Shown: in pieces, positions 378 through 27,604 of the stretch | How the letters are laid out: the number at the start of each line of letters is the position of its first letter | Numbering within the stretch: the stretch's first letter is position 1 | Origin: a virus | Length of the DNA: 64,000 bases | Direction: 5' to 3' (one strand) | IMG/VR virus record: IMGVR_UViG_3300032313_000668 | Span: 54,252-118,251 of that record | Made by a program: the position numbers and the translations under genes | The notes under the pieces: model-generated | Told to the model about the DNA's origin: nothing | The model's input: only the letters and a program-made list of their open reading frames with translations | The model's database searches: none

Positions 378-3300
378 TTAGTCCCTTCCTGTCATCTTGC
401 GCCATTCATTAACATCAATAGCTTCAATTTCTTTTAGTCTCTGTATGATACGAGCCAACTGAGCAGGGCGCATTTGTCCTGGTTCTAATGACTCAAGATA
501 TTGAATCGCCTGTTGGATGCTCATATCTACAAGTTTCTTGTAAGCCTCAGCGCCTAGCTTCTTGGCCATTTGCTCAACAATAGCGCCACCATCACGTCCA
601 TAGCGACCAATTCTTAAAGCAAATTCCTTTGCATCATACATGTTTCGTGACTTGTCATCGTTAAGAGCAGAAGCAAATCCGTGGTCGATAGGTATGATAT
701 GAGCATTTTCATGTCCGTTATCTCCTACACCAGCAGCGTCAATATTTCCAAACTGGAAATTAACGTGGTGGCGGTCAGTATTACTAATAACTGCATCCAA
801 GATACCCATACGGATAGTGTCGATTAGGGTTGCTTTTTCAGCAGCACCTTCTGTGCGACCAATTTTGTTCTCGACATTAACAAATCCAGTAGCTGGTCCA
901 GTTAGGCGAAGAGTGTCACCAGCAAATGTCTGAACTACAACACCTGGGTCAAGTTCGTGCACCTCGGAGAATACACGACCACCAATTCCAAGAGCAGCAG
1001 TAATACGAGCAACTTCTGCTTCGGCGCGAGCTGCCTGCGGAGTCTGCTCACGTTTGAACATAAACTTCTGTCCAGTGGCTTTGTCAGTTACGAAGAAGTT
1101 CTCTCCGCTGTTAATACCAGTGCTTACCTGCTTGACTGTAAAACCAGTGTCCTGACCATCAATAACTAGGTCTCCATTTGGTCCAGCTTTTTTAGCTGCA
1201 GCAAAGAATTTTTTAGGCTCTATTGTCATTAAGCGAAGGCCAATTGCACCTAAGTCATTACGCTGTGGCTGGTAGAAGTCACGTTCTTGATGAAGCGCTA
1301 TTGCCAAATCAACTAGCTCTGAAGCAGTCTCCTTGTCTTTACCACTACTCTTTAGAAGCTCTGAAACTTTTTGTGCTACGGCTTGACGCTCGCGGAGGTC
1401 AAGTGCAGCCATTGGGTTAGCGTCACCATTGAAGAATTCCTGAATCTTATCTTTGAATGGGCGTAGGAAAGGAGAATCTTCAAAGACTTTATCATCAGCG
1501 AATAACGCTTTTATTTTTTCTTTTGCTTGGAATTTATTCTCCCCCGCTGCAACGCGGTCTTCAGCAAGTGCAATTGGGTCAACTTCTTCTAAGTTAATTC
1601 CAGCAAATGGACGTATAGGACGCTCTAGTACACGACGTACCATGAAGTCTTGCATCTCTTGAAGCTTGTCTCCAAACTCCTTATACTTCTCATCATTGGC
1701 ACCATTTAGACCACGAATTGCTTCGCTTAGGTTACTCATATCTGCTACTAGTGGGTCAGCAGCTGAACTTAAGTTATCGCGGAAGTTACGAAGATTATCT
1801 AGAGCACGAATTGGCTTGCGGTCAGCGTCTTCATCTTCATCTTTTGGAAGACGGTCGATAATTTGCTCAACTAATTTAAGGAAGTCATCCTTAGATTCCT
1901 TACCTTCTCCAGGCATAATGTCTTCTGGAAGCTCAGCGTTACGGCGAGCTAAGAACTTATCGCGGGCTTCACCTTTGAGTAGATTCTTTTTCTCAACTAG
2001 TTGGTCAAGAGCCTTCTGAGCAAACTCAGCAATCTGCTTTTCCTCATCGTTTCCGTATGCATTGACCTTCTCAATAATCTTCTGAAGAGGTGTGTCATCA
2101 AAATTCTTTAGAGCATTTTCGTCTCCATTAGCAAGACGTTCTGCAGCATCGAGACCTTTTTGAGCATATTCGCCAGCGCGACGAACTTGACGGTCTGCAT
2201 CAATTTCATTTGGCTGAGGAAGTTTCTCTTGAAGTGCCTTAAAGATATCTACAAGGTTGTCCTTGTCTAACTCAGCGGGAGTTCCAATAACTAGATTTTC
2301 ATCAAATGGCTTAGCAAGACGTTTCTTGTAAGCAGCAAGACGCTGTTCACGGAAGATAGCCTTGTTATCCTCGACTAGCTTGAGCATGTCCTCAAGCTTC
2401 TGAGCAATCTCATCTTGACGTGGGTCTTTACGACGACGCAATTGTTCAATAGCACGTTTGATTTCATAATCACCGATAGTGTCTGGGTCGTTATTCTCTA
2501 GTTGAGCTCGGTAACTACGGATTCTATCCGCTGCACGATATAAATCATCGTCTGCATCGCGTTCTTCAGATGTCGGAAGAAGTGCAATAACTGCATCAAG
2601 TGCACCAGCAACCTTTTCGCGGTTTAGTTCTTCGGCATTTGCTGGGAAAGCATCATCTGCAAGTGGTTGATTCATACGTTGAATGAACTTAGCGTGACGA
2701 ACTGCACGGTCAGCAAGAGCTTTTTCATTGATAACACCATTTAGTGCCTCAAGTTTATCTGCTAAAGCATTCTGAGCATCAGCATCAATTCCTGCTCTAC
2801 GGATGTACTTGATTGCACTATCTAGATAGTCTGGGTCTAAACGGTCAAAGTCTGCTTCACCAAGACGTTCTAGTTTGTCAATAGCGTTACGAACATACTG
2901 ACCACCTTGATATAAGTCTCGGTCAATGTCATAGTTTTGACGGTTTGGTAGACGGTTGTCGAACTCTTTCAAAACATCAATAACACCTTGACGATTTAGA
3001 GCATCAACATTCTCTGGGATAGCTACACCATCTATAGGATTCTTTAGATTCTCGGCAATTGCATCTGCACGCTTCTTGCGAATCTCTGCTTTCTTAGCAT
3101 CAATATTGTCACGAAGTTTCTCAAGCTCTGGAAGGATTTGAGCCTTTAGAGCAGGGTCAACAATTTTGCTTGCATAACGAATAGCATCGTTAATTTCATA
3201 TGAACCAACTCGGTCAACTGGACCACGACCTAATTCCTCATTCAACTCATCAATACGACGACGTGCCCAACGAGCATTGCGCTCTGCACGATTGTTGCGG

Positions 3301-6300
3301 AACTTGGGCATCTTTGCAGCAAGTTCACCTAGCTTGGCGCGAATTGCTTCGGGGTCTTCTAGGTCAACGAACGGGTCTCCTGCTGCCGCTGCAGGTGCTT
3401 CAGGAACTGGAGCAACCTCTGGAGCAACTTCTTCTACTGCAGGAGCTTCTGCTGCTGGAGCTTGAGGTGCTTCAACTGATGGAGCTTTTTCCTCTATTGC
3501 AGGTGCAGCTGGAACTGCTGGTGCTGCTGGAGCTTCTGCGTTATCCATGCGATAAACATTCGGAAGTTCAAAGCCCTTTGCAATTGGGTTGTACTCCCAC
3601 TGACGACCATTTGGGTACTCAACTTTGATGCGAACTGCACGGTCTAGGTCTTCAATTGCTACAACGCGACCAATGTTCTTGTCACCCTTTGTAGGTAGGA
3701 AGTCACCAACCTTTACATCACCTGCAGCAAAAGCCTGAGGCTTCACATTTTCTTTGAACCAATCAATGTCGTGTACAAATGAAGGCTTAGCAACTGGCTG
3801 TCCTTCTACGGCTTCTGGCACAACGCCATCAGCTACATTCTTTACATCGCCAACAACTTCTTCAACTTCTGCATCAGCAGCATCTACTGCTTCATTACCC
3901 TTACGAGGCTTCTTACGACGCTCTGCAAGTGCGATGTCCATTTCTTCTTGGTTCATCCAGTTAATGCGTGGCTCTGCATCGAAACGCTGCTTAGCAACGG
4001 CACCATCAACGTGACGCTGGAAGCGTGAAGCAAACTTACGAACGTCTCCGTTTGGATACTTAACTAGAACATAGTCAACGTATACAACACCCTTACGTTG
4101 TAGTCCACCAATTTCTCCTTGGACTTTACCAATTACTTCACCCTCGCCATACTTATCTGCCTTGGCTGGGTTTTCGTGAATAACCTTGTCACCAATTGCT
4201 AGTGGGTTACCGTTTGAGTCTGCGTAAAGACCTGCAAGCATGCGTAGGAACACCTGACGACGATACTTCTCAGGGATTGGAGGCAGGTTGCGACGCCCAC
4301 GACCATCTGAGCGAAGAAGCAAACCATCGCGCTGCTCTTTAATTTGCTCAGCAAGTGCATCAGCCATTGCATCAATGTTGTTGCGTCCGCCTTCAGAGGC
4401 TGCCTTGCGGTCAGGGAAGTTCTCAACAATCTGAGCAACTACTTCACCTTCGTCAACAACTTTTGCATCTGACTTGAAAACAATTTCTGCATCTACAAGC
4501 TGCGGAGTAATTTCGTTCTGACCTTCACCAACTGGTAGGTCCTCAACAACTTCAACAACTGGAAGTTGGTCAACGTTTGCTGGTTCCACACCAACAGCAA
4601 CTGACTTCTCTTTAGACTCTGGCTTACCTTCATTACGACGAGCAGCGTCTGCCTGCTCTACAGCAGCGCGACGTAGAAGTGCTTTACCTTCTGCCTCTGC
4701 ACCAGCTTGTGATAAGTAGCGTCCCTCGAATACATAAATTTCATTTCCTTCATTGTCAAGGATTCGACCCTTAGCAATAAATTCATCTCCGTCTTGAGTA
4801 ATCTCAAGTACAGCATTTCCAGCAGCAACAGTAACTGCTTGCTTGTTTACATCTTCAGGTGTGCGCTCTACTTCTGGAAGTGGTTCGCCTGCAAGTTCTG
4901 CACGGTTCTTAGGACGACGAACTTCATCTAGGAATGCATTTTGATTCCAGAAAACAACTTTCTGTTCGCCTTCAGGATTTTGGACAACAATACGGCGCTT
5001 GAATTCCTCGACACCAAATTCTTCTCCACCACGGATGGATACAACTTGGAAGAATTCTTCTTTGTCTTTAATAGCTTTAACAAAGTCTCCAGGACGTAAG
5101 TCATTAGCCTTAATTTCACCACGGAACAGCTGGTCAACCTTCTCAAGGTCATTAGCAAACTCAGGTTCTGCAATGCGCATCTTGCCGTCGGGGAATGCAG
5201 AATCAATCTGCACATCAACAAGGTCAGCTTGTGGCTTTGGAGCCTGCTCTGGATTATCCATTGCACCAACATTGTCGATTGGGCCTTCTGGAAGTGCAGC
5301 AGGAATCTCTTTCTGAATCTCTGCAAGGTCTACTGGCTTACCAGCAAGTCCATCACGAAGAGCCTTCTTTGCAACATAATCTGCAGCGGCTTTATTAAAC
5401 TCATCGATGCGTGGCTGTAGTGCTGCCATCTTTGCATCGTAGGCAGCCTTCTGTGCGTCTGCATCAAGAGCAGCTACACCGAAATCACCACTAGCAGCAA
5501 GGTCAATAAGTTTTGTAAATGCTTGAGCTGTCACTTCTGCATCATTTAGACCATCATGCCAGTTTTCATTTTTAATTCCTAGGAATTCGGCAATTACACC
5601 AAGACCCTTTTTATCTGGAGCATCTGGCGCATCCTTAAAGATTTCTGCAGCCATTCCCATGGTGTCAGCCATGCCAGCAGGGTTCCACTCAAGGCCAAGT
5701 TCTGCAGCCTTACGTTTCATAATTTCGTCGTCAAACTTTGCGTTCTGTGCAATAGCAAGTGGGTTTGCGCCAGCCCATTCTAAGAACTGCGCAAGTCCTT
5801 CTGCTTGACTTGGCTTATCAGCAAAGAACTCATCAGTTAGCGGATTGCCATCTGGGTCTTTTGCATTTTCCCCAGCGTATGTACCCTTAAGACTTCTGCC
5901 TGGGTTCATAAAGATATTGATACGGTCAACAATCTTGCCATCGCGCATCTTAACTGCAGCAATCTGCCAAGGTTCATTGCCGTCTTTTACATCTACGCCA
6001 GTTGTCTCAAAGTCAAAAACAATCAGGTCTTGACCTGCAAGCTTTTTCTTAAACTCTGCCCAATTACCTTGAGCTTCTTTAGCCCACTCAGCAAACTTGC
6101 CCATAAACGCTGGGTATGCAGGTTCGCGGGGTTTTGGTGGAAGTTTAATGTTGTCTTCAAGTTTATTTTCACCAGTAACATCACCAAAAGAAACAATTGG
6201 AAGATTCTCTGGTGGAATCCAACGACCCTTTACTTCTGCAAGCTTTGCTTCATGCTCAGCGTTGAGAGCTGTATCTTCAATTGGGAACCAACCACCCTTA

Positions 6301-9300
6301 GGTCCTCGACCTGCTGGACGGTGTAGCGAACCTTCACCAAGTTGCGGTGCTTGGTCTTCAGGAATGCCACGATAAACTTCAATGCGTGTGTCAGGCTTCC
6401 ACTGCTTCTCTTGTAGACCTTGACCTGGGTAATGACCAACAATAATAATCTTGTCGCCTTCTCCAGCCTTGATATCAACAATGCGGAAGTGGTCCTTAGT
6501 GCTAATGTCGCCAATCTGAAGGTCTTTTGCTTTTACCTTAACAATGAATGGGCCATTTGGTGGTCCACCAGCTGCGGCTGCAGGTAGTGCATCAGCCTGT
6601 GCAGCGTTATCAACAAATCCATCTTCTTCGCGCTTTGTTGGGTCAACAAAGTTTGCGCTAGCGGCTTGTACTGCAGCTTTATGTGCTGCTAGGTCTGCTG
6701 CATATTTTTCTTGTATGGCTGGGTCTTTTGCACCCCACTCGCCGTCAATCTTCTTCATGTCCTTGCGACCACCAACGTAGTCTTCAAGTTTTGGTTTATT
6801 TAGTGGTTCAGCGTTGCCCTTTGCAGGAGCAGCAGCACCACGAATAACTTCAATCTTTCCTTCAGCAAACCAGTCACGGTCTTGTGTTTGGTGACCTGGG
6901 TAATAGCCCTTAACGTTAATACGATTACGGCCCTTATCCTTTTGACCACCCTCACTCAAGTCTGCAGGGGCTGCAACTTCTTCAATAACAAAGAACTCGT
7001 TATCGCGAACTGCAATATCACCAGGCTGTAGATTTTTAGCAGCAACCATTTCACGACGTGGCTCGCCCATTGCAAGGTCAGCCTCTTGTGAACCTAGTCG
7101 TTCGACTCCTTCGGCAGCTTCTGCTCTTCCTTCAGCTCCCTGAGGTGCAATATCTGCTGGTAGTCCTGCCTTTGGTTCAGCGGCGTCGGGTCTTTGCGCG
7201 TTCTGCGGAGCTTGCTGCGGGGCTTCGGCTGGTTCTTCTTGGACATTTTCCCCTTCCAGTGCATCGACAATCTCTTGGTTAGACGGTTCGTTGTCGTTAC
7301 CTTCGGCATAGATGTCTTTAAGCAAGGCGTTTGTATCTTCACCTTGAAGCTGTAGTGCATCACGGATTGCTTCACCTGGAACAGAGGCTTGGTATGCCTC
7401 GCCCTCTGGTGTTTCTTGGGCAAGAATGCCATGTCCTGGCATGTTGTTTGCTGGCTCTACGGCACGACGAAGTTCACCCTTAAGTTCTTCTTTGTCATAT
7501 CCAAGAGCAATATCTACTGGGTTGTTTGAGAAACCTTCTGGAGCATCTGCTGGTACGTCAACGATGGCTTCATTAAATGGCTCGTTGTCTAAAGCAACAT
7601 ATCCCTCGGGGACATCCTGCTCTTGATTTTCTGGCAAATACTTTTTGTAGTCACCATTGTCAATAAAGTCGCGCTGCTCTTCAGGAGTCATGCCCTCGAT
7701 TAGAGGTGGCAATTCTTTTGTAGGAACTTTAGCAACAGGTGCTTCTGCAACGTCTGCTTCAGCAAGTGCATCAGCCATTTCTTTTTTCTCAAACTTGTAT
7801 AGGTCATCAAGGAACTTGTCAACATCGACGCCTTGTTCCTTCAGTGCGTTGTAAAGAGCTTCCGCTGGAACGCGCTCATCGCCTTCTTGGAATGGAAGAC
7901 GGCCAACACCTGTAGCAGGGTCTTCTGGAGTTCCTTCTACGGCATCCTTAAGAGATTCTTGCAACTCTTCTTGGTCAAACTTCTGTGCAAGTTCTGCAGG
8001 GTCATCTGTAAAGTCTGGAGACTCCTGACCATTGATTGGGCCCTCTGGCTTGTACTCATCGCGGTCTACTTCATAAGCACCCTTAGGAGCAAACCTTTCA
8101 CGGATACGCTCCATGAGACCAGGCTCTTCGTCTGGTAAGAAAACCTGACGCTCAGTATTGCGAAGCATCTCGCCAGAATCTCTATCAACGATAGAGCCAT
8201 CTGGAAGAAGCGCCCAGTTCTTACGTGGGTCTAGCGGAACTAGTCCACCATTCTTACGGAAGTCTTTTAGGCTCTTGCGGTACTCGCTTAGCTCTGCGCG
8301 AGATGCCTTCGGGTTACCAGGAATAAACTCTGTGCCCTCAGGGAATTCGCTAGCGCCGTCTTCTGGAAGTTCTGCAACTGGCTTGGCTGGTGGTTTATCT
8401 CCACCATCATCTCCGCCACCCATACGGTCTGGGCTTGGGTTTTCGTTTTTCTCAAAGCGTGGCTCATCTTGTCCAATAAAGTCTTGTACTTCTGCCCATG
8501 ACTGAACAGCAGCAAATGGACGGTCATCTTCTTGTCCTCGACGATTTACTAAAAATACTGGCTTGTTAGGGTCAAGCTCACCATTAGCGCCATCACCCTG
8601 TGCAACAACATTTTGGCCTTCACGCTCACGTTGCTGTGCCATTTCAAACTGGTCTTTAGCAAACTGATTGTTTTCCATTTTGATGACGTCATATGCATCA
8701 TCTGTGTACTTAACTCCGAGGTCAACGTTCTCGCCATAAAGGTCTTGGTCTTCTTTCTTTGGAGACCATGCATCATCGCGACGGAAACCTTCTGGTGCCT
8801 CAATCTCGATAAGGTCTGCTTCGTTAAGTACTGGGTCTTTTGCTGAAGCCTTTGCTGCACCCTTTGAGTAGCCATCCTTGGTCTGCTGACTTGGGATGAT
8901 TGCTTTAATTGCTTCTACATTGCCTGCTGGAACACGGAATAGTCTTCCATCTGGAGTTTCCATATCGAAAGTGTCGCCTTCGATTCCCTGAGAAACAGCG
9001 CGACCATTCAAATTCTGAATCATGCCATTAACACGACGGATAAGTGCACGGAGACCGCCACCCATTTCAGCAAAGCGACCCTTACGGTCACGACGCTGAC
9101 GCATTGCACGAGCACGACGAGCTGCAGAAGAGTTTCCATCTCCTAGAGCTGCAAGAAGTGCATACTGAGGAATTTGTCCTTCTGGGAAAGACTCGAGGCG
9201 AGCAACAGAGTATTCGTACTCTGCAGAAGCTGGGTGTGCAGTAAGTGCAGATGCAAGAAGTGTCTTGATTGCTGCGTCTTTAATAGTTGGGTCATCAGTC

Positions 9301-9740
9301 ACCCAACGGGCACGGGACTGCATCAATGATGCGGTAGTCATATCATGTGCACGAGTTGAACGTGGGTGTGCAACTGGAAGAAGGTCTGTGTGTTCTGGCT
9401 TACCGTTTAGGACACGGTTTTGTTGAGCAAGAGTGACGTACTGAGAAAGTTCTGTAAGAGCGCGGTGCTTGCGAACAGAGAAAGGCTCTGCTTCATTCTT
9501 AGCAATCGAGCGGTCAACAATTGTCAATGCTGCACGAGCTGTAACTAAACGAGTACCAGTAAATTCGGTGTTGGCTTCTTTAACAAGAGCGAGGGCAGCA
9601 TCTTTAATCTTTTGTGTCTGCTCTTCAATAGTGCTGAGATTCTTTGCACGCTTGATAGGTACGCAGTTAGGCACTTTTTTCCCGTTCTTCATTTTCATTC
9701 CGATTTGCTCGTATCCGTCCCAGCAAGGATTCTCAGCCAT
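378..9740 (-). CDS. giant polyvalent virion protein with DnaQ-like exonuclease and HipA-like kinase domains
   Basis: This 3120-residue protein starts by TAATG overlap with the upstream gene. The N-terminus carries a CWDGYEQIGMKMKNGKKVPN segment typical of phage head-associated proteins, then a helical domain ending in DLLPVAHPRST (about 118-128) that is shared with its neighbour. Acidic low-complexity linkers follow. Four small beta-type modules each open with an A-x-D-L-x-x-GD-like signature (about 903, 1075, 1546, 2012). A DEDDh exonuclease fold spans about 1235-1410 (DFETTG; NAKFDDE; HDGLNDAE). Pro/Ala-rich linkers lead into four or five helical repeats of about 130 residues (2145-2700). 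The C-terminus (about 2860-3060) has a HipA/PI3K-like kinase core with NTDRHHVNF and IPIDHGF. Family knowledge suggests a polyvalent protein packaged in the head and injected with DNA. Substrates of both enzymes are unknown. Confidence 0.85.
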   Translation of the reverse strand: MAENPCWDGYEQIGMKMKNGKKVPNCVPIKRAKNLSTIEEQTQKIKDAALALVKEANTEFTGTRLVTARAALTIVDRSIAKNEAEPFSVRKHRALTELSQYVTLAQQNRVLNGKPEHTDLLPVAHPRSTRAHDMTTASLMQSRARWVTDDPTIKDAAIKTLLASALTAHPASAEYEYSVARLESFPEGQIPQYALLAALGDGNSSAARRARAMRQRRDRKGRFAEMGGGLRALIRRVNGMIQNLNGRAVSQGIEGDTFDMETPDGRLFRVPAGNVEAIKAIIPSQQTKDGYSKGAAKASAKDPVLNEADLIEIEAPEGFRRDDAWSPKKEDQDLYGENVDLGVKYTDDAYDVIKMENNQFAKDQFEMAQQREREGQNVVAQGDGANGELDPNKPVFLVNRRGQEDDRPFAAVQSWAEVQDFIGQDEPRFEKNENPSPDRMGGGDDGGDKPPAKPVAELPEDGASEFPEGTEFIPGNPKASRAELSEYRKSLKDFRKNGGLVPLDPRKNWALLPDGSIVDRDSGEMLRNTERQVFLPDEEPGLMERIRERFAPKGAYEVDRDEYKPEGPINGQESPDFTDDPAELAQKFDQEELQESLKDAVEGTPEDPATGVGRLPFQEGDERVPAEALYNALKEQGVDVDKFLDDLYKFEKKEMADALAEADVAEAPVAKVPTKELPPLIEGMTPEEQRDFIDNGDYKKYLPENQEQDVPEGYVALDNEPFNEAIVDVPADAPEGFSNNPVDIALGYDKEELKGELRRAVEPANNMPGHGILAQETPEGEAYQASVPGEAIRDALQLQGEDTNALLKDIYAEGNDNEPSNQEIVDALEGENVQEEPAEAPQQAPQNAQRPDAAEPKAGLPADIAPQGAEGRAEAAEGVERLGSQEADLAMGEPRREMVAAKNLQPGDIAVRDNEFFVIEEVAAPADLSEGGQKDKGRNRINVKGYYPGHQTQDRDWFAEGKIEVIRGAAAPAKGNAEPLNKPKLEDYVGGRKDMKKIDGEWGAKDPAIQEKYAADLAAHKAAVQAASANFVDPTKREEDGFVDNAAQADALPAAAAGGPPNGPFIVKVKAKDLQIGDISTKDHFRIVDIKAGEGDKIIIVGHYPGQGLQEKQWKPDTRIEVYRGIPEDQAPQLGEGSLHRPAGRGPKGGWFPIEDTALNAEHEAKLAEVKGRWIPPENLPIVSFGDVTGENKLEDNIKLPPKPREPAYPAFMGKFAEWAKEAQGNWAEFKKKLAGQDLIVFDFETTGVDVKDGNEPWQIAAVKMRDGKIVDRINIFMNPGRSLKGTYAGENAKDPDGNPLTDEFFADKPSQAEGLAQFLEWAGANPLAIAQNAKFDDEIMKRKAAELGLEWNPAGMADTMGMAAEIFKDAPDAPDKKGLGVIAEFLGIKNENWHDGLNDAEVTAQAFTKLIDLAASGDFGVAALDADAQKAAYDAKMAALQPRIDEFNKAAADYVAKKALRDGLAGKPVDLAEIQKEIPAALPEGPIDNVGAMDNPEQAPKPQADLVDVQIDSAFPDGKMRIAEPEFANDLEKVDQLFRGEIKANDLRPGDFVKAIKDKEEFFQVVSIRGGEEFGVEEFKRRIVVQNPEGEQKVVFWNQNAFLDEVRRPKNRAELAGEPLPEVERTPEDVNKQAVTVAAGNAVLEITQDGDEFIAKGRILDNEGNEIYVFEGRYLSQAGAEAEGKALLRRAAVEQADAARRNEGKPESKEKSVAVGVEPANVDQLPVVEVVEDLPVGEGQNEITPQLVDAEIVFKSDAKVVDEGEVVAQIVENFPDRKAASEGGRNNIDAMADALAEQIKEQRDGLLLRSDGRGRRNLPPIPEKYRRQVFLRMLAGLYADSNGNPLAIGDKVIHENPAKADKYGEGEVIGKVQGEIGGLQRKGVVYVDYVLVKYPNGDVRKFASRFQRHVDGAVAKQRFDAEPRINWMNQEEMDIALAERRKKPRKGNEAVDAADAEVEEVVGDVKNVADGVVPEAVEGQPVAKPSFVHDIDWFKENVKPQAFAAGDVKVGDFLPTKGDKNIGRVVAIEDLDRAVRIKVEYPNGRQWEYNPIAKGFELPNVYRMDNAEAPAAPAVPAAPAIEEKAPSVEAPQAPAAEAPAVEEVAPEVAPVPEAPAAAAGDPFVDLEDPEAIRAKLGELAAKMPKFRNNRAERNARWARRRIDELNEELGRGPVDRVGSYEINDAIRYASKIVDPALKAQILPELEKLRDNIDAKKAEIRKKRADAIAENLKNPIDGVAIPENVDALNRQGVIDVLKEFDNRLPNRQNYDIDRDLYQGGQYVRNAIDKLERLGEADFDRLDPDYLDSAIKYIRRAGIDADAQNALADKLEALNGVINEKALADRAVRHAKFIQRMNQPLADDAFPANAEELNREKVAGALDAVIALLPTSEERDADDDLYRAADRIRSYRAQLENNDPDTIGDYEIKRAIEQLRRRKDPRQDEIAQKLEDMLKLVEDNKAIFREQRLAAYKKRLAKPFDENLVIGTPAELDKDNLVDIFKALQEKLPQPNEIDADRQVRRAGEYAQKGLDAAERLANGDENALKNFDDTPLQKIIEKVNAYGNDEEKQIAEFAQKALDQLVEKKNLLKGEARDKFLARRNAELPEDIMPGEGKESKDDFLKLVEQIIDRLPKDEDEDADRKPIRALDNLRNFRDNLSSAADPLVADMSNLSEAIRGLNGANDEKYKEFGDKLQEMQDFMVRRVLERPIRPFAGINLEEVDPIALAEDRVAAGENKFQAKEKIKALFADDKVFEDSPFLRPFKDKIQEFFNGDANPMAALDLRERQAVAQKVSELLKSSGKDKETASELVDLAIALHQERDFYQPQRNDLGAIGLRLMTIEPKKFFAAAKKAGPNGDLVIDGQDTGFTVKQVSTGINSGENFFVTDKATGQKFMFKREQTPQAARAEAEVARITAALGIGGRVFSEVHELDPGVVVQTFAGDTLRLTGPATGFVNVENKIGRTEGAAEKATLIDTIRMGILDAVISNTDRHHVNFQFGNIDAAGVGDNGHENAHIIPIDHGFASALNDDKSRNMYDAKEFALRIGRYGRDGGAIVEQMAKKLGAEAYKKLVDMSIQQAIQYLESLEPGQMRPAQLARIIQRLKEIEAIDVNEWRKMTGRD

Positions 9741-19637: not shown

Positions 19638-19689
19638 ATTGTTTCAACCTTCCTGACATTTGTCAAGGAATTAGTTCTTCGGCGTGTCG
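19638..19689 (-). promoter_or_regulatory. composite promoter for the 19599 gene
   Basis: Minus strand: CGACACGCCGA box (19679-19689), TTGACA (19661-19666), 17-base spacer AATGTCAGGAAGGTTGA, AACAAT (19638-19643). The box lies inside the 3' end of the upstream phosphatase gene. Confidence 0.8.
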
Positions 19690-20306
19690 CTTCCGTATGA
19701 GTCGCCTTGCCAAACCTTCGGGTCTTGTTCAAGTAAGAACTTCTCAAAGGACTTGTTGCATAGTGCCCACTCGCTTCGCTTCTCACGAATAAGGTCAATG
19801 GCTTCACGAGCACCCATGCCCTCACGAATAAGAACCAATGCTGTGATGAGCCCTGAACGATTCCAACCAGCCTGACAACGAATAAGAACTCGCTTGCCAC
19901 GCTTCCAATCGGCATGAGCCAATCGCACAATGTCAAACAACTCTGCGGTATTCATCTTGTTGATGTCTGAGTCCCAAACTCCATAACGGAATTCTTTTAC
20001 AAACCAATCAACAGGATTAGCGTCCGCATACATTGTGATAACGGTGTCAAAGTTCTTTGGTGTAATCATTGGAACTTTTAGCTGTCTATCAACATCAAGG
20101 TCATCTGTTCCACCTTGCCAAAGTCCATTGAGCACCTCTGACCACAATGGGTCGTAGTAGCGTCGTCCAGCCTGACCGTAGTCTGGTCTCTCCAGATTTA
20201 CTAAGTCTGCTTCGTCTTCGGCATTGAGGTTCTCCCATAGAACTTGCGCTGACGCAACCTCTAGGTCTTCCCACTCTTTGTCTGTCATTTCTTTCACCTT
20301 CTTCAT
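19671..20306 (-). CDS. dual-specificity / tyrosine phosphatase-like protein
   Basis: 211 residues. The signature VLIRCQAGWNRSG (about 143-155) is the CX5R active-site loop of cysteine phosphatases, with a plausible general-acid Asp in VWDSDINKM upstream. The fold order (beta strand, loop, helix LITALVLIREG) agrees with the dual-specificity group. Substrate unknown: phosphoprotein, phosphoinositide or nucleotide are all possible. Starts after a perfect AACGACGAAAGG leader. Confidence 0.75.
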   Translation of the reverse strand: MKKVKEMTDKEWEDLEVASAQVLWENLNAEDEADLVNLERPDYGQAGRRYYDPLWSEVLNGLWQGGTDDLDVDRQLKVPMITPKNFDTVITMYADANPVDWFVKEFRYGVWDSDINKMNTAELFDIVRLAHADWKRGKRVLIRCQAGWNRSGLITALVLIREGMGAREAIDLIREKRSEWALCNKSFEKFLLEQDPKVWQGDSYGSDTPKN

Positions 20307-20673: not shown

Positions 20674-21237
20674 CTACCCAGACTGGGAGATTACATAGAT
20701 TGGTTCGCCAGAGGAGGGGTCTAGTCGAGTCGCAACTCCAACCGCACTCTTCACGGCGCTGCGTGCTGCGCTGATGGTGCGTTTTTTACCTTCAAGGGAG
20801 GTGTGCATTGAACCAAGAGCATAACCAGCTCCAGAACCCATTGAGTAAATGCCTGACTCGTCTGATGCCCAGTCGTAACCACCACCAATTTCATAGATGC
20901 GTCCGTGTATAACTACCAGCACGGAGGAGTCTTGTTCGCCCTTTTCCCCGTATTGAGCATCATCAAAACATTGTTTCAGAGCAGGAACGAACTTAGAAGA
21001 GATGAACTTGTCTAACTTGACGCCATACTCTGTTGCTGTTGGGACAGGAGGCTTGAAGGTATGTGCAAGTAGATTGACCGCACGCATGTCTCCCGCAGCG
21101 CCAAAGATGTATGCGCCATTTTTTACCACCTTGCCAGCATCTTTCGGCAGCACAAAGATGCGATTGTCTTCGGTAACTCGGCTGTCGTAGCCAATCACCG
21201 CCCAACCTTCGCCCTGGATAGCTGCAATCGTGGTCAA
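20674..21237 (-). CDS. proteasome beta / HslV-like Ntn hydrolase
   Basis: 187 residues if translation begins at the TTG at 21237, giving MTTIAAIQGEGWAVIGYDSR. Removal of the initiator Met exposes Thr1; Asp17, Ser18 and Arg19 fall exactly where proteasome/HslV peptidases have them. GAAGDMRAV matches the AGG-type strand, and SMGSGAGYALGSM the conserved GSG turn near residue 129. Length agrees with HslV (about 175). GGAG lies 11 bases before the TTG. Longer in-frame starts (ATG 21334) would overlap the upstream gene and put an unusual residue before the Thr. No unfoldase of the HslU type is seen nearby. Confidence 0.8.
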   Translation of the reverse strand: MTTIAAIQGEGWAVIGYDSRVTEDNRIFVLPKDAGKVVKNGAYIFGAAGDMRAVNLLAHTFKPPVPTATEYGVKLDKFISSKFVPALKQCFDDAQYGEKGEQDSSVLVVIHGRIYEIGGGYDWASDESGIYSMGSGAGYALGSMHTSLEGKKRTISAARSAVKSAVGVATRLDPSSGEPIYVISQSG

Positions 21238-21295
21238 GTTATTCTCTTCTCCCTGGAGCTGCTGCAACGCAGCTTGCGTATTTTTTACCTGAGCT

Positions 21296-21547
21296 TTAGT
21301 CTTCCCACAATAACTCACGCAGCGAATCTTCATGCTTATCGGCATGGTGATGTGCGTTGTTTTTTGCAGAGATGTCTTCCTCGTCAATGAGCCTGTCAAG
21401 AGAAAGAACCGCAACGCAGCCTTCCTCCTCGAACATCACAACAAGTTTGGTTTCCCCATCATTTGGGTCGTCAATGATTGCTGCTATGAACGGCGTGGCA
21501 GAGCCATTTTGGTGGAAGGACTTATCTACGATACTTGGTCTCAACAT
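21296..21547 (-). CDS. hypothetical acidic protein
   Basis: 83 residues with a beta-rich core (ETKLVVMFEEEGCVAVLSLD) and a His cluster (NNAHHHADKHED). Ends 58 bases before the proteasome-like gene and is probably co-transcribed with it. An AGGAGAGG Shine-Dalgarno lies 12 bases upstream of the ATG. Unknown function. Confidence 0.6.
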   Translation of the reverse strand: MLRPSIVDKSFHQNGSATPFIAAIIDDPNDGETKLVVMFEEEGCVAVLSLDRLIDEEDISAKNNAHHHADKHEDSLRELLWED

Positions 21548-24614: not shown

Positions 24615-26426
24615 TTAGGCGTTGAGCCTACCCACATTTGTAAGTTCCCCAGCAGCACGCCTACCGATTTCGGAAGCAGCGCCTGTTGGGTCTAGCACTC
24701 CTGACATGACCGCCACCTTGCCGTGTCGTGTCAGTCTCTCAGCATAATGCCCTCCGTCAAACGGAAGCCATAAAATGGCTACGCCTGACTCGTTGCATCT
24801 AGCAATCCACTTCCTTGCAAACTCTCGTTCTTCGGTAGTGTATTGACCATCTGAGACGACAACCAGCAGTCTAGCACCGCTTCCGTTCAGAAGATTGAGG
24901 CTTCCGTCAAGTGCTCGAAAAGCCTTGTCGAACTTCTCCGTGCCATCAGGTGCATTATAGACATTTACATCTTCTAGGTGTTGCCCTGACTTTAGGGTCG
25001 GAAACACATCTGAGCCGTAATAAACCATCGCACACTTGCCTTGCACACGGCGAACCGCCTCCGACATAACCCACGCTGTGGTTGCCATTGGTTGCATCGC
25101 AGAACCCATCGAACCTGAGATGTCCACCATCACGCCAACTGTAAGTGTTGGGTCTTCGGTGTGCTTGCGAACTGTGCGACGAAACGGCGCAACCTGTTGC
25201 ATCACGCCACGCTCTTTGAGTGCTCGACCTTGAACCATCTGTCGAGTGCGTAGACGCCCTGGAGGTGTGATGCTTGCAATCTCTACCGCATCACGCTCAC
25301 GATACTTTGCCTTTTCTAGCATCTGTGCAATCTGAACAGCAGCAATTCTCTCTTGTGGAGTTGGCTTGCGAGTCTCAACTAGGCGAGAGCCAGTCTTTGA
25401 TGTGCCGACACCTGTGGATTTGTCAAACACCTCTTTTGCAGTATCTCTGTTCTTCTGTTGCTCTTTCGACTCTGCTTGCTTATCTTTTACTTCTTGTTCC
25501 CACTCTTCGGCTTGCTCTTGGTCTGCGAGCGCATCTGCGTTGCCAATCGAAATAACCGCACCTGCTTCTTCTAGTGCGTCCATCAGCATCTTTGCAAACT
25601 CTTTAGACATACCACTTGAGCCTTCGCCATCTTCGCCTGACTCAGGTTTGCCATCTTCTCCCTGACCATCGCCTTTTTCTTCGGCAACTTCACGAATAAT
25701 CTTTGCCCACTCTTTAGCAAGTGGATAAAGAGGTTCGGCATTGGCATGCATTGTGTGTGCTTGGAATTTGTGTGCAATCGCACGCAACTTCGCAATAACT
25801 TCGGGAGTCATGTAGCCATCTACTAACTCGACTAAATCTTTTACTTCATCGGCATCGAGGATACCCGCATCTATACGAGCATGAACTGTTGCCACCAAAA
25901 AAGCAGCACTCTGAGTATTTGATGAGGTCTCGAACTTTTCTTTGGCATCTGAGATAACGATGTCCATCGCACATGCACGCAGGAAGTTGAGAGACTCAGG
26001 CATCGCCAAAAGCCCCTGAGCTTCAATACGACTTTCCTCTAATAGGACAAGTGCTTGGTGCTCATCTTTTTCTAAATCTTTGTATGCTTTTTCTAAATCC
26101 CAATTAGAGAACTTTGCGTGAAACGCCTCATGCATAATTGCACCAGTTGCTTTTGCAAACTCGAACTGTGTTGCTCTTTCAGTAAGGTCTCCAACTTGCT
26201 CAGGGGAAACCATCTTGCCAAAAGCAATCGCTGTATCTACTTCAATCTCTGCGAGCGCAGGGTTGTAGCACGCTGGTGCTCCATGTCCTGCATCTGTTCC
26301 AACATAACCAACTAGGTCATGGCGCTCACTCCATTTGTTAGCAAGTTCGCCAATCGCACGACCTACGGCAAGCCACTCAGGTGGAGTGTTGCTTGCTCTG
26401 TTCTCGCTGTGCTTTAGATGTGCCAT
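24615..26426 (-). CDS. VWA-domain protein with HExxH motif (CobT/MoxR-partner type)
   Basis: 603 residues. The N-terminal part has AIMHEAFHAKF (about 98), an HExxH zinc-protease-like motif in a helical domain. The middle is acidic and Gly/Ser/Glu rich (about 250-340). The C-terminal VWA domain (about 430-600) has the MIDAS motif MVDISGSMGSAM and VVVSDGQYTTEE. It pairs with the AAA+ gene immediately upstream in the leftward transcript, as MoxR ATPases pair with VWA proteins in metal-chelatase and chaperone systems. Phage copies are often annotated as cobaltochelatase subunits CobT/CobS; the true substrate is unknown. Confidence 0.8.
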   Translation of the reverse strand: MAHLKHSENRASNTPPEWLAVGRAIGELANKWSERHDLVGYVGTDAGHGAPACYNPALAEIEVDTAIAFGKMVSPEQVGDLTERATQFEFAKATGAIMHEAFHAKFSNWDLEKAYKDLEKDEHQALVLLEESRIEAQGLLAMPESLNFLRACAMDIVISDAKEKFETSSNTQSAAFLVATVHARIDAGILDADEVKDLVELVDGYMTPEVIAKLRAIAHKFQAHTMHANAEPLYPLAKEWAKIIREVAEEKGDGQGEDGKPESGEDGEGSSGMSKEFAKMLMDALEEAGAVISIGNADALADQEQAEEWEQEVKDKQAESKEQQKNRDTAKEVFDKSTGVGTSKTGSRLVETRKPTPQERIAAVQIAQMLEKAKYRERDAVEIASITPPGRLRTRQMVQGRALKERGVMQQVAPFRRTVRKHTEDPTLTVGVMVDISGSMGSAMQPMATTAWVMSEAVRRVQGKCAMVYYGSDVFPTLKSGQHLEDVNVYNAPDGTEKFDKAFRALDGSLNLLNGSGARLLVVVSDGQYTTEEREFARKWIARCNESGVAILWLPFDGGHYAERLTRHGKVAVMSGVLDPTGAASEIGRRAAGELTNVGRLNA

Positions 26427-26474
26427 TTTGTATCCTTCCGTTTTATGTCTCGGTGTCCAATCGAGTAATGCAAT

Positions 26475-26502
26475 TCTATAATGAAAAGTTGTTGGGTGTC
26501 AA
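26475..26502 (-). promoter_or_regulatory. promoter for the VWA gene
   Basis: Minus strand TTGACA (26497-26502), 16-base spacer, TATAGA (26475-26480). The spacer lacks the TGCAGG word, unlike most neighbours. CGGAAGGATAC precedes the start. Confidence 0.65.
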
Positions 26503-26569
26503 GTTAGGGTGGGAGAGGAGCGACACCCATGAAGCCCCTCCCCCTCAGCGAAATCTAAAACGAGGAGGA

Positions 26570-27604
26570 TTAGATTTTCGCTGGCTTGCACTCGGTGGCA
26601 TACACACGAGTCAAGACATCAGCCACAATGGCTCTGTCCAACTCAGGTGAAGCAGCGAGCAGATTAGAAATCGCAAACTCAGTTCCGAAAGTTTCTGCGA
26701 TGTCACGGAACGCAAGTAGTTCACGCATCTGTGGCGACCATGAAACTTCACGAGCCAGTTGCTTCTTTGCCAAGTTTTGAGCAGCAGTCACCAATGGTGT
26801 TGGCACGCCCATCTTGCGAGACAAGTTCCAGTCGGTAGTCATTTCAACCTGCAAGGTGAAACGAGATAGCAACGCCTCAGAGAGACGAACTCCTGGAGCA
26901 TTTGGGTTAGTTGCAGCAACTACAAAGAACTCGGGGTGAGCCTTGATAGTTCCTCGCTCAGGGTTTGCTGTGATTGTAAGTTCACGGCGTCCGTCCATCA
27001 GTCCGTAGACGATTGAAAGAACCTTAGGGTCAATCAAACCAATCTCGTCAATGAAGTAAACGCCACCAGTTTCGGCTGCTTTTACCAAGTCGCCATCAAC
27101 CCACTCGAAGCCACCCGCAGGTGTCTGAACATAGCCACCAATCATGTCGGCAACTTCTGTATCGCCAGTTCCCATCAAGGTGTAAACATCTGAGTAAGCA
27201 GCTTCGACGAGTGCAGTTTTACCGCACCCTGGAGCGCCATAGAGAAGTGCGAACATCGCAGAACCTCCAGAGCCAGCAAACACTTTCGATGTTGCCTCAC
27301 GAGCCTTGCGTAGTGTTAGAACATCTGAGTGTCCACCCCACTTGCGACCAAAATACTGTGAACCATTTGGACGAGTGTAAGCCTCTTCGCCTTCCATGCC
27401 ATCAACCGCAACTGCTTGGTCAATCGCCTTCTTGCGAGGTGCACGCTCTGCACCTGATGCACGAGCAACATAGCGACCTGTTGGGTTCACTTTTGCGCTC
27501 AGTTGAACAGATGCTTCTTCGTTTCCGAACTGAGAAACAGTATCTATTACTGCGTCCCAAAATCCTGCGCCAATGTCGGCGTAGCGTTCTTTTAGAGTTT
27601 CCAT
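26570..27604 (-). CDS. MoxR/CobS-like AAA+ ATPase
   Basis: 344 residues. Walker A GAPGCGKTA (about 126), Walker B VYFIDEIG, sensor-1 ATNPN and an arginine-finger region (LLSRFTLQVEM) are all present, in MoxR order. It uses ATP to drive remodelling by its VWA partner encoded next. Starts after AGGAGAAGTAAAAATG. Together with the 27623 gene and the VWA gene it forms one leftward group. Confidence 0.85.
   Translation of the reverse strand: METLKERYADIGAGFWDAVIDTVSQFGNEEASVQLSAKVNPTGRYVARASGAERAPRKKAIDQAVAVDGMEGEEAYTRPNGSQYFGRKWGGHSDVLTLRKAREATSKVFAGSGGSAMFALLYGAPGCGKTALVEAAYSDVYTLMGTGDTEVADMIGGYVQTPAGGFEWVDGDLVKAAETGGVYFIDEIGLIDPKVLSIVYGLMDGRRELTITANPERGTIKAHPEFFVVAATNPNAPGVRLSEALLSRFTLQVEMTTDWNLSRKMGVPTPLVTAAQNLAKKQLAREVSWSPQMRELLAFRDIAETFGTEFAISNLLAASPELDRAIVADVLTRVYATECKPAKI

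What the first reader, a model, noticed from the sequence alone, without database searches (positions are those of the whole stretch)
20674..21237. Phage proteasome-beta/HslV-like peptidase whose TTG start would expose the catalytic Thr
Starting at the TTG, the protein begins M-T-T-I with Asp17, Ser18 and Arg19 in register with HslV and proteasome beta subunits, and has the GSG turn. Initiator removal would give a mature Thr1 with no propeptide, as in HslV. No alpha subunit or HslU is seen. It may use host ATPases, form a self-standing ring, or alter the host proteasome that many actinobacteria have.
Basis: partly seen in the sequence, partly recalled or inferred. Interest (0 to 1): 0.8.

Follow-up and report, generated by a model that had tools for sequence, protein, structure and literature searches.

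The report
Phage proteasome-like threonine peptidase
A virus of freshwater actinobacteria carries a gene for a small relative of the proteasome/HslV protein-cutting enzymes that starts directly with its predicted cutting residue; this kind of viral gene has been described before, but here it is shown to be widespread and, in one abundant related phage group, an optional, swappable accessory gene.

Summary
It is a real proteasome-fold (Ntn-hydrolase) peptidase: PHROG 1040 "peptidase HslV family" E=1e-26; profile match to BPH and HslV over the whole length; AlphaFold pLDDT 92; best Foldseek hits BPH, then HslV. Of 131 distinct relatives, all read M-T-T and 125 have no possible upstream start codon, so Thr1 follows the initiator Met with no propeptide. 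Thr1, Asp17 and the Lys33 equivalent are essentially invariant; dN/dS is 0.05–0.12.

It is not HslV or PrcB: scores lie far below their curated cut-offs. Its own record shows one proteasome-fold match only, and none of 34 phage records holds a ClpX/HslU-type ATPase. It fits the "group I" proteasome homologs of Fuchs et al. 2021, probably AAH; exact subfamily untested.

New here: in abundant ~40-kb freshwater actinophages the gene sits directly after the portal gene, in two alleles only 31% identical although portals are 75% identical, and 9 of 68 close relatives lack it there. So it is accessory, not an obligate capsid protease. Most likely a propeptide-less, ATPase-independent ring peptidase used against host proteins. 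Function untested. New member of a known kind.

The parts
20674..21237 (-). proteasome-like (group I) N-terminal threonine peptidase, 187 aa
   Evidence: purifying selection dN/dS 0.05-0.12
21235..21237 (-). TTG start codon (initiator Met, predicted removed)
   Evidence: start position conserved as M in 131/131 relatives, forced in 125/131
21246..21254 (-). Shine-Dalgarno-like AGGGAGAAG, 8 nt before TTG
   Evidence: sequence; SD-like motif in 130/131 relatives
21232..21234 (-). codon of predicted nucleophile Thr1
   Evidence: 131/131 relatives
21184..21186 (-). codon of Asp17
   Evidence: D in 130/131, E in 1
21130..21132 (-). codon of the Lys33 equivalent (mature 35)
   Evidence: K in 131/131
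21091..21093 (-). codon of the oxyanion-hole Gly47 equivalent (mature 48)
   Evidence: G in 131/131
20830..20838 (-). G-S-G turn with the Ser129 equivalent
   Evidence: GSG or GTG in all complete rows (S 103, T 27)
20719..20721 (-). codon of the Asp166 equivalent (D-x-x-S-G)
   Evidence: D 99, N 21, S 9 of 131
21296..21547 (-). upstream 83-aa gene, no known family; a homologue lies near the peptidase gene in 14 loci; context only
19671..20306 (-). downstream dual-specificity phosphatase-like gene; context only
   Evidence: PF00782 E=9e-11
26570..27604 (-). AAA_5/CobS-like (MoxR-type) ATPase, not a shown partner
   Evidence: PF07728 E=2e-20; no match above cut-off in the small phages that carry the peptidase
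24615..26426 (-). CobT/VWA-like protein next to the AAA_5 ATPase
   Evidence: weak VWA_CoxE match; 49% identical to DSL-LC01 'cobalamin biosynthesis protein'

Best explanation
A phage-encoded group I proteasome homolog (HslV/BPH-like N-terminal threonine peptidase). Steps: (1) translation from TTG gives fMet-Thr-Thr...; host methionine aminopeptidase removes Met and exposes Thr1 (start shown by comparison; Met removal inferred from the established preference of that enzyme for small second residues). (2) Thr1, with Asp17 and Lys33, attacks peptide bonds (residues shown; activity inferred). (3) Subunits assemble into a ring or double ring made of one kind of subunit, like BPH, with an acidic loop at the pore instead of an ATPase gate (fold shown by prediction; assembly inferred). 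(4) It works without a dedicated unfoldase and cleaves peptides, unfolded proteins or one particular host protein during infection, as an accessory host-interaction function and not in capsid maturation (accessory status shown in a related phage group; target unknown). Identity of the enzyme class about 0.95; ATPase-independent about 0.6; host-directed accessory role about 0.5.
For: Fold and family. Start and catalytic set. No alpha subunit or second proteasome-fold gene in the own record and no ClpX/HslU-type ATPase in 34 phage records. Loop after helix 2 is mostly 11-18 aa with net charge down to -5, aligning with the acidic loop of BPH; Fuchs 2021 links a long acidic pore loop to independence from an unfoldase. 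Accessory and exchangeable: portals of B- and C-type phages 75% identical while the peptidase in the same slot is 31% identical; 59 of 68 portal-anchored loci carry it, 9 have the flanking genes directly joined, two of them on 39.9- and 37.5-kb contigs with no copy anywhere. Separate capsid maturation proteases are annotated in DSL-LC01, Pitbull and WaterT. One phage (G050) carries two diverged types, both M-T-T.
Against: No biochemical data on any phage member were found. Ring assembly was not modelled. The accessory evidence comes from ~40-kb relatives, not from the window's own lineage, where presence is also patchy but contigs are fragments. A host ATPase partner cannot be excluded. The Asp166 equivalent is N or S in about a quarter of relatives.
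Confidence: 0.55

Rival explanations
1. Head-assembly (prohead) protease: it cleaves scaffold, portal or capsid proteins during maturation.
For: In ~40-kb relatives the gene lies directly after the portal gene and upstream of the scaffold-like and major head genes, the usual slot of prohead proteases; no other protease was recognised among ten head-module proteins of OX376640.
Against: Nine close relatives lack it with flanking genes intact; peptidase alleles are swapped while the portal stays conserved (major head protein 75-84% identical in the one pair compared); phages with other gene orders have separate annotated capsid maturation proteases. In the window's lineage it sits among small genes kilobases from the portal.
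Confidence: 0.12
2. It relies on a host machine: it docks with host ClpX/ClpC/Mpa-type ATPases or mixes with host PrcB rings.
For: No own ClpX/HslU-type ATPase; hosts are actinobacteria, many of which have a proteasome (general knowledge).
Against: Mpa docks on alpha rings, and no alpha subunit is encoded (established knowledge); sequence is far from PrcB; the acidic loop resembles unfoldase-independent BPH. Relatives occur in phages of hosts not known for proteasomes, e.g. Vibrio and Psychrobacter.
Confidence: 0.15
3. A highly specific Ntn enzyme (self-processing, ligase or amidase, like connectase) and not a general peptidase.
For: The family includes the monomeric protein ligase connectase (PMC8665760).
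Against: No connectase-type helical insertion is predicted, and the first pair of helices, which connectase lacks, is present.
Confidence: 0.13
4. Inactive remnant or spurious ORF.
For: TTG start, frame open upstream.
Against: dN/dS 0.05-0.12, invariant catalytic residues, hundreds of relatives.
Confidence: 0.01

Closest known systems
Group I proteasome homologs of Fuchs et al. 2021 (AAH; also CPH, PPH), PMC8665760
   Same: Compact proteasome fold, Thr1/Asp17/Lys33, no propeptide, known in phages, no AAA+ partner found
   Different: The paper found no Actinobacteria-specific phage with AAH; here the family is abundant in WhiB-carrying phages. Exact subfamily not testable here. PPH is ~140 aa and lacks H2, unlike this one
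BPH (5OVS, 5OVT, 5OVU)
   Same: Best PDB profile hit (E=1.7e-12) and best Foldseek hit (TM 0.77); acidic loop after H2
   Different: Only 16-17% identity in the best structural alignments; bacterial, not phage
HslV (ClpQ)
   Same: M-T-T start without long propeptide, GSG turn, fold (Foldseek E about 2e-11)
   Different: 24 bits against an equivalog cut-off of 157.75; no HslU; longer acidic loop
PHROG 1040 'peptidase HslV family'; DSL-LC01 WJZ48484.1 annotated HslV; Microbacterium and Arthrobacter phage genes annotated 'protease'
   Same: Same family; DSL-LC01 protein 46% identical in a related phage
   Different: Annotation only; no function tested

Membership tests
Proteasome-like Ntn hydrolases (superfamily) | N-terminal Thr nucleophile with Asp17, Lys33 and oxyanion Gly | tested here: met
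   131/131 T, 130/131 D, 131/131 K, 131/131 G
Proteasome-like Ntn hydrolases (superfamily) | proteasome-type Ntn fold | tested here: met
   pLDDT 92, pTM 0.87; the 50 Foldseek hits listed are all proteasome-family chains
HslV | passes the HslV equivalog cut-off | tested here: not met
   24.3 bits vs 157.75 (TIGR03692), 25.7 vs 137 (NF003964)
HslV | paired with HslU ATPase | tested here: not met
   no AAA_2 match in 34 records
Bacterial proteasome beta (PrcB) | PrcB equivalog cut-off, propeptide, alpha partner | tested here: not met
   12.3 vs 191.9 bits; no propeptide; one proteasome-fold gene in own record
PPH (Fuchs 2021) | ~140 residues, lacks helix H2 | tested here: not met
   187 aa; helices 51-59 and 72-93 both predicted (definition)
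AAH (Fuchs 2021) | clusters with AAH sequences (KEGG OC.661151) | not testable with these tools
   reference set not held; alphaproteobacterial and Streptomyces plasmid relatives are compatible
BPH | sequence similarity over the full length and acidic pore loop | tested here: inconclusive
   profile hit E=1.7e-12 over the whole length but 16-17% identity in the Foldseek alignment
BPH / HslV | double-ring assembly | not testable with these tools
   no complex prediction offered
Anbu | C-terminal H5 helix extension | tested here: not met
   chain ends with strand 180-186 (definition)
Prohead (capsid maturation) protease | retained in all phages with the same head module | tested here: not met
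   absent from 9 of 68 loci with 84-96% identical portal; tested in ~40-kb relatives, not in the window's lineage

The most novel reading that the evidence does not exclude
A mobile set of phage proteasome homologs, swapped between deeply diverged alleles at a fixed genomic slot, acts as ATPase-free proteolytic rings that destroy specific host defence or regulatory proteins during infection.
Probability: 0.25. Interest if true: 0.75.

Novelty: new member of a known kind. Interest (0 to 1): 0.42.

Why it matters
The function of viral proteasome homologs is open. The comparison made here supplies (a) a firm start site with Thr1 exposed, (b) natural phage pairs that differ by presence or absence, or by allele, of this one gene, and (c) cultured actinophages (Pitbull, Hum25, Pumpernickel, WaterT) that carry it and could be tested by deletion. 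It also updates the 2021 statement that no actinobacterial phages carry AAH-type genes, if the AAH assignment holds.

Tried and rejected
Two scans of 84,980 bacterial/archaeal genomes (peptidase alignment, phage RNR) found no relative by short conserved patterns, so cellular relatives come from plasmids only and no host genome could be used as a centre. A viral scan with the Pumpernickel protein found nothing. The broad alignment A1 was too diverse for pattern searching. Literature searches gave only Fuchs 2021 on viral proteasome homologs and the DSL-LC01 paper as useful. The CobS-like AAA_5 ATPase 5 kb away was considered as a partner and dropped because small phages with the peptidase have no match above cut-off. 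The prohead protease idea, raised by the gene order in ~40-kb phages, was dropped as an obligate role after the presence/absence survey.

Full report
WHAT IS THERE. The gene lies on the minus strand, 21237→20674, start TTG, 187 aa. The + strand of the same stretch has stops throughout. A purine-rich AGGGAGAAG lies 8 nt before the TTG. The window is bases 54252-118251 of a 118-kb virus record. The record shares many genes, in partly conserved blocks, with Actinomycetia phage DSL-LC01 (MCP 76%, RNR 78%, helicase 76%, peptidase 46%). It has two WhiB genes, so the host is very probably an actinobacterium.

FAMILY AND FOLD. PHROG 1040 'peptidase HslV family' matches at E=9.8e-27. Pfam Proteasome is weak for the single protein (E=0.008) but passes 1e-3 in 17 of 30 relatives. 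A profile of 30 relatives finds 148 PDB sequences at E≤0.01, and the 60 listed are all HslV, BPH or proteasome beta; BPH is best (E=1.7e-12, full length). AlphaFold2 gives pLDDT 92.1, pTM 0.87. Foldseek: BPH 5OVS/5OVT E=3e-12, TM 0.77, then HslV. Among viral models the best is a phage protein annotated HslV (TM 0.94). HslV and PrcB equivalog cut-offs are missed by wide margins.

THE N-TERMINUS. The window alone cannot fix the start because the frame is open about 66 codons upstream. Relatives can. 131 distinct complete proteins all read M-T-T; start codons vary (ATG 112, GTG 14, TTG 5); in 125 of 131 no start codon is possible upstream (median 4 codons to the preceding stop); 130 have an SD-like motif. 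Annotated starts in WaterT, Pitbull, Pumpernickel and Tunturi_5 coincide. Cellular relatives on Sinorhizobium, Mesorhizobium, Paraburkholderia and Streptomyces plasmids also begin M-T. Met removal before Thr is expected from the known specificity of methionine aminopeptidase (inference). Absence of a propeptide is the rule in these families, according to Fuchs 2021, so it is not a surprise.

CATALYTIC SET. Thr1 131/131, Asp17 130/131, Lys33 equivalent 131/131, Gly47 equivalent 131/131, GSG or GTG, Asp166 equivalent D 99/N 21/S 9. dN/dS against close relatives is 0.05-0.12.

PARTNERS. The own record has one proteasome-fold match only. None of 34 phage records has a ClpX/HslU-type AAA_2 domain, while all 14 control genomes do. 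A CobS-like AAA_5 ATPase with a CobT/VWA partner lies 3-6 kb away and also occurs in DSL-LC01, but strong matches are confined to the large phages, so it is not a required partner. [quoted passage not shown]

CONTEXT AND EVOLUTION. Scans found at least 199 and 144 viral contigs for two relatives; 28 of 34 records tested carry WhiB. In ~40-kb phages of two peptidase types (B and C) the gene sits directly after the portal gene and upstream of the scaffold-like and major head genes. This is the slot of prohead proteases, and that was tested. Portals of B- and C-type phages are 75% identical on average (66-88%), yet the peptidases in that slot are 31% identical (27-35%); within B both are about 77-78%. 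So alleles have been exchanged, or this one gene has diverged extremely fast. In a portal-anchored sample (portals 84-96% identical), 59 of 68 loci with enough downstream sequence have the peptidase and 9 have the two following genes joined directly to the portal; contigs of 39.9 and 37.5 kb among these nine have no copy anywhere. The gene is therefore dispensable there. In the window's lineage, 8 of 13 contigs carrying the neighbouring phosphatase gene have the peptidase, but contigs are fragments. One 122.9-kb contig has two copies, one of the window's type and one C-like, both M-T-T. A tree puts the window protein with L006/L007 and then other A-type sequences; deep branches, isolates and plasmid sequences are poorly resolved.

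MECHANISM. Most likely: initiator Met removed, Thr1 exposed, assembly into a BPH-like ring, ATPase-independent peptidolysis directed at host peptides or proteins as an accessory infection function. Shown: start, catalytic residues, predicted fold, lack of phage-encoded unfoldase of the ClpX/HslU type, accessory status in the related group. Inferred: Met removal, ring, activity, target.

KNOWN OR NEW. Fuchs, Alva and Lupas 2021 (PMC8665760) described viral proteasome homologs (PPH, AAH, CPH), found no AAA+ partner, and reported no Actinobacteria-specific phage with AAH. This protein is not PPH (187 aa, helix 2 present). AAH is likely but could not be tested against their set. Phage members are already annotated in GenBank and PHROGs. 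So: new member of a known kind, with a useful addition on abundance, allele exchange and dispensability.

Noticed in passing
L115, L132, L083 and other ~40-kb phages; L213 7500-8036: Peptidase slot directly after the portal gene holds one of two alleles only ~31% identical although the portals are ~75% identical; 9 of 68 related loci have a clean absence.
   Followed up: yes
L311 2648-3226 and L312 2977-3549 (contig G050, 122.9 kb): One phage carries two diverged proteasome-like genes, both with Met-Thr-Thr.
   Followed up: partly
L313 3001-3546: Relative of the peptidase, annotated only as hypothetical protein, on a Sinorhizobium plasmid between nifQ and nifS; similar genes on other rhizobial plasmids.
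   Followed up: partly
24615-27604: CobS-like AAA_5 ATPase and CobT/VWA-like protein pair in the phage, also in DSL-LC01; AAA_5 also in other large relatives; role unknown.
   Followed up: partly
19671-20306: Dual-specificity protein phosphatase-like gene downstream of the peptidase, also near it in related phages.
   Followed up: partly
378-9740: Very long minus-strand ORF (about 3,120 aa) of which only part matches a large DSL-LC01 protein (35% over 292 aa).
   Followed up: no
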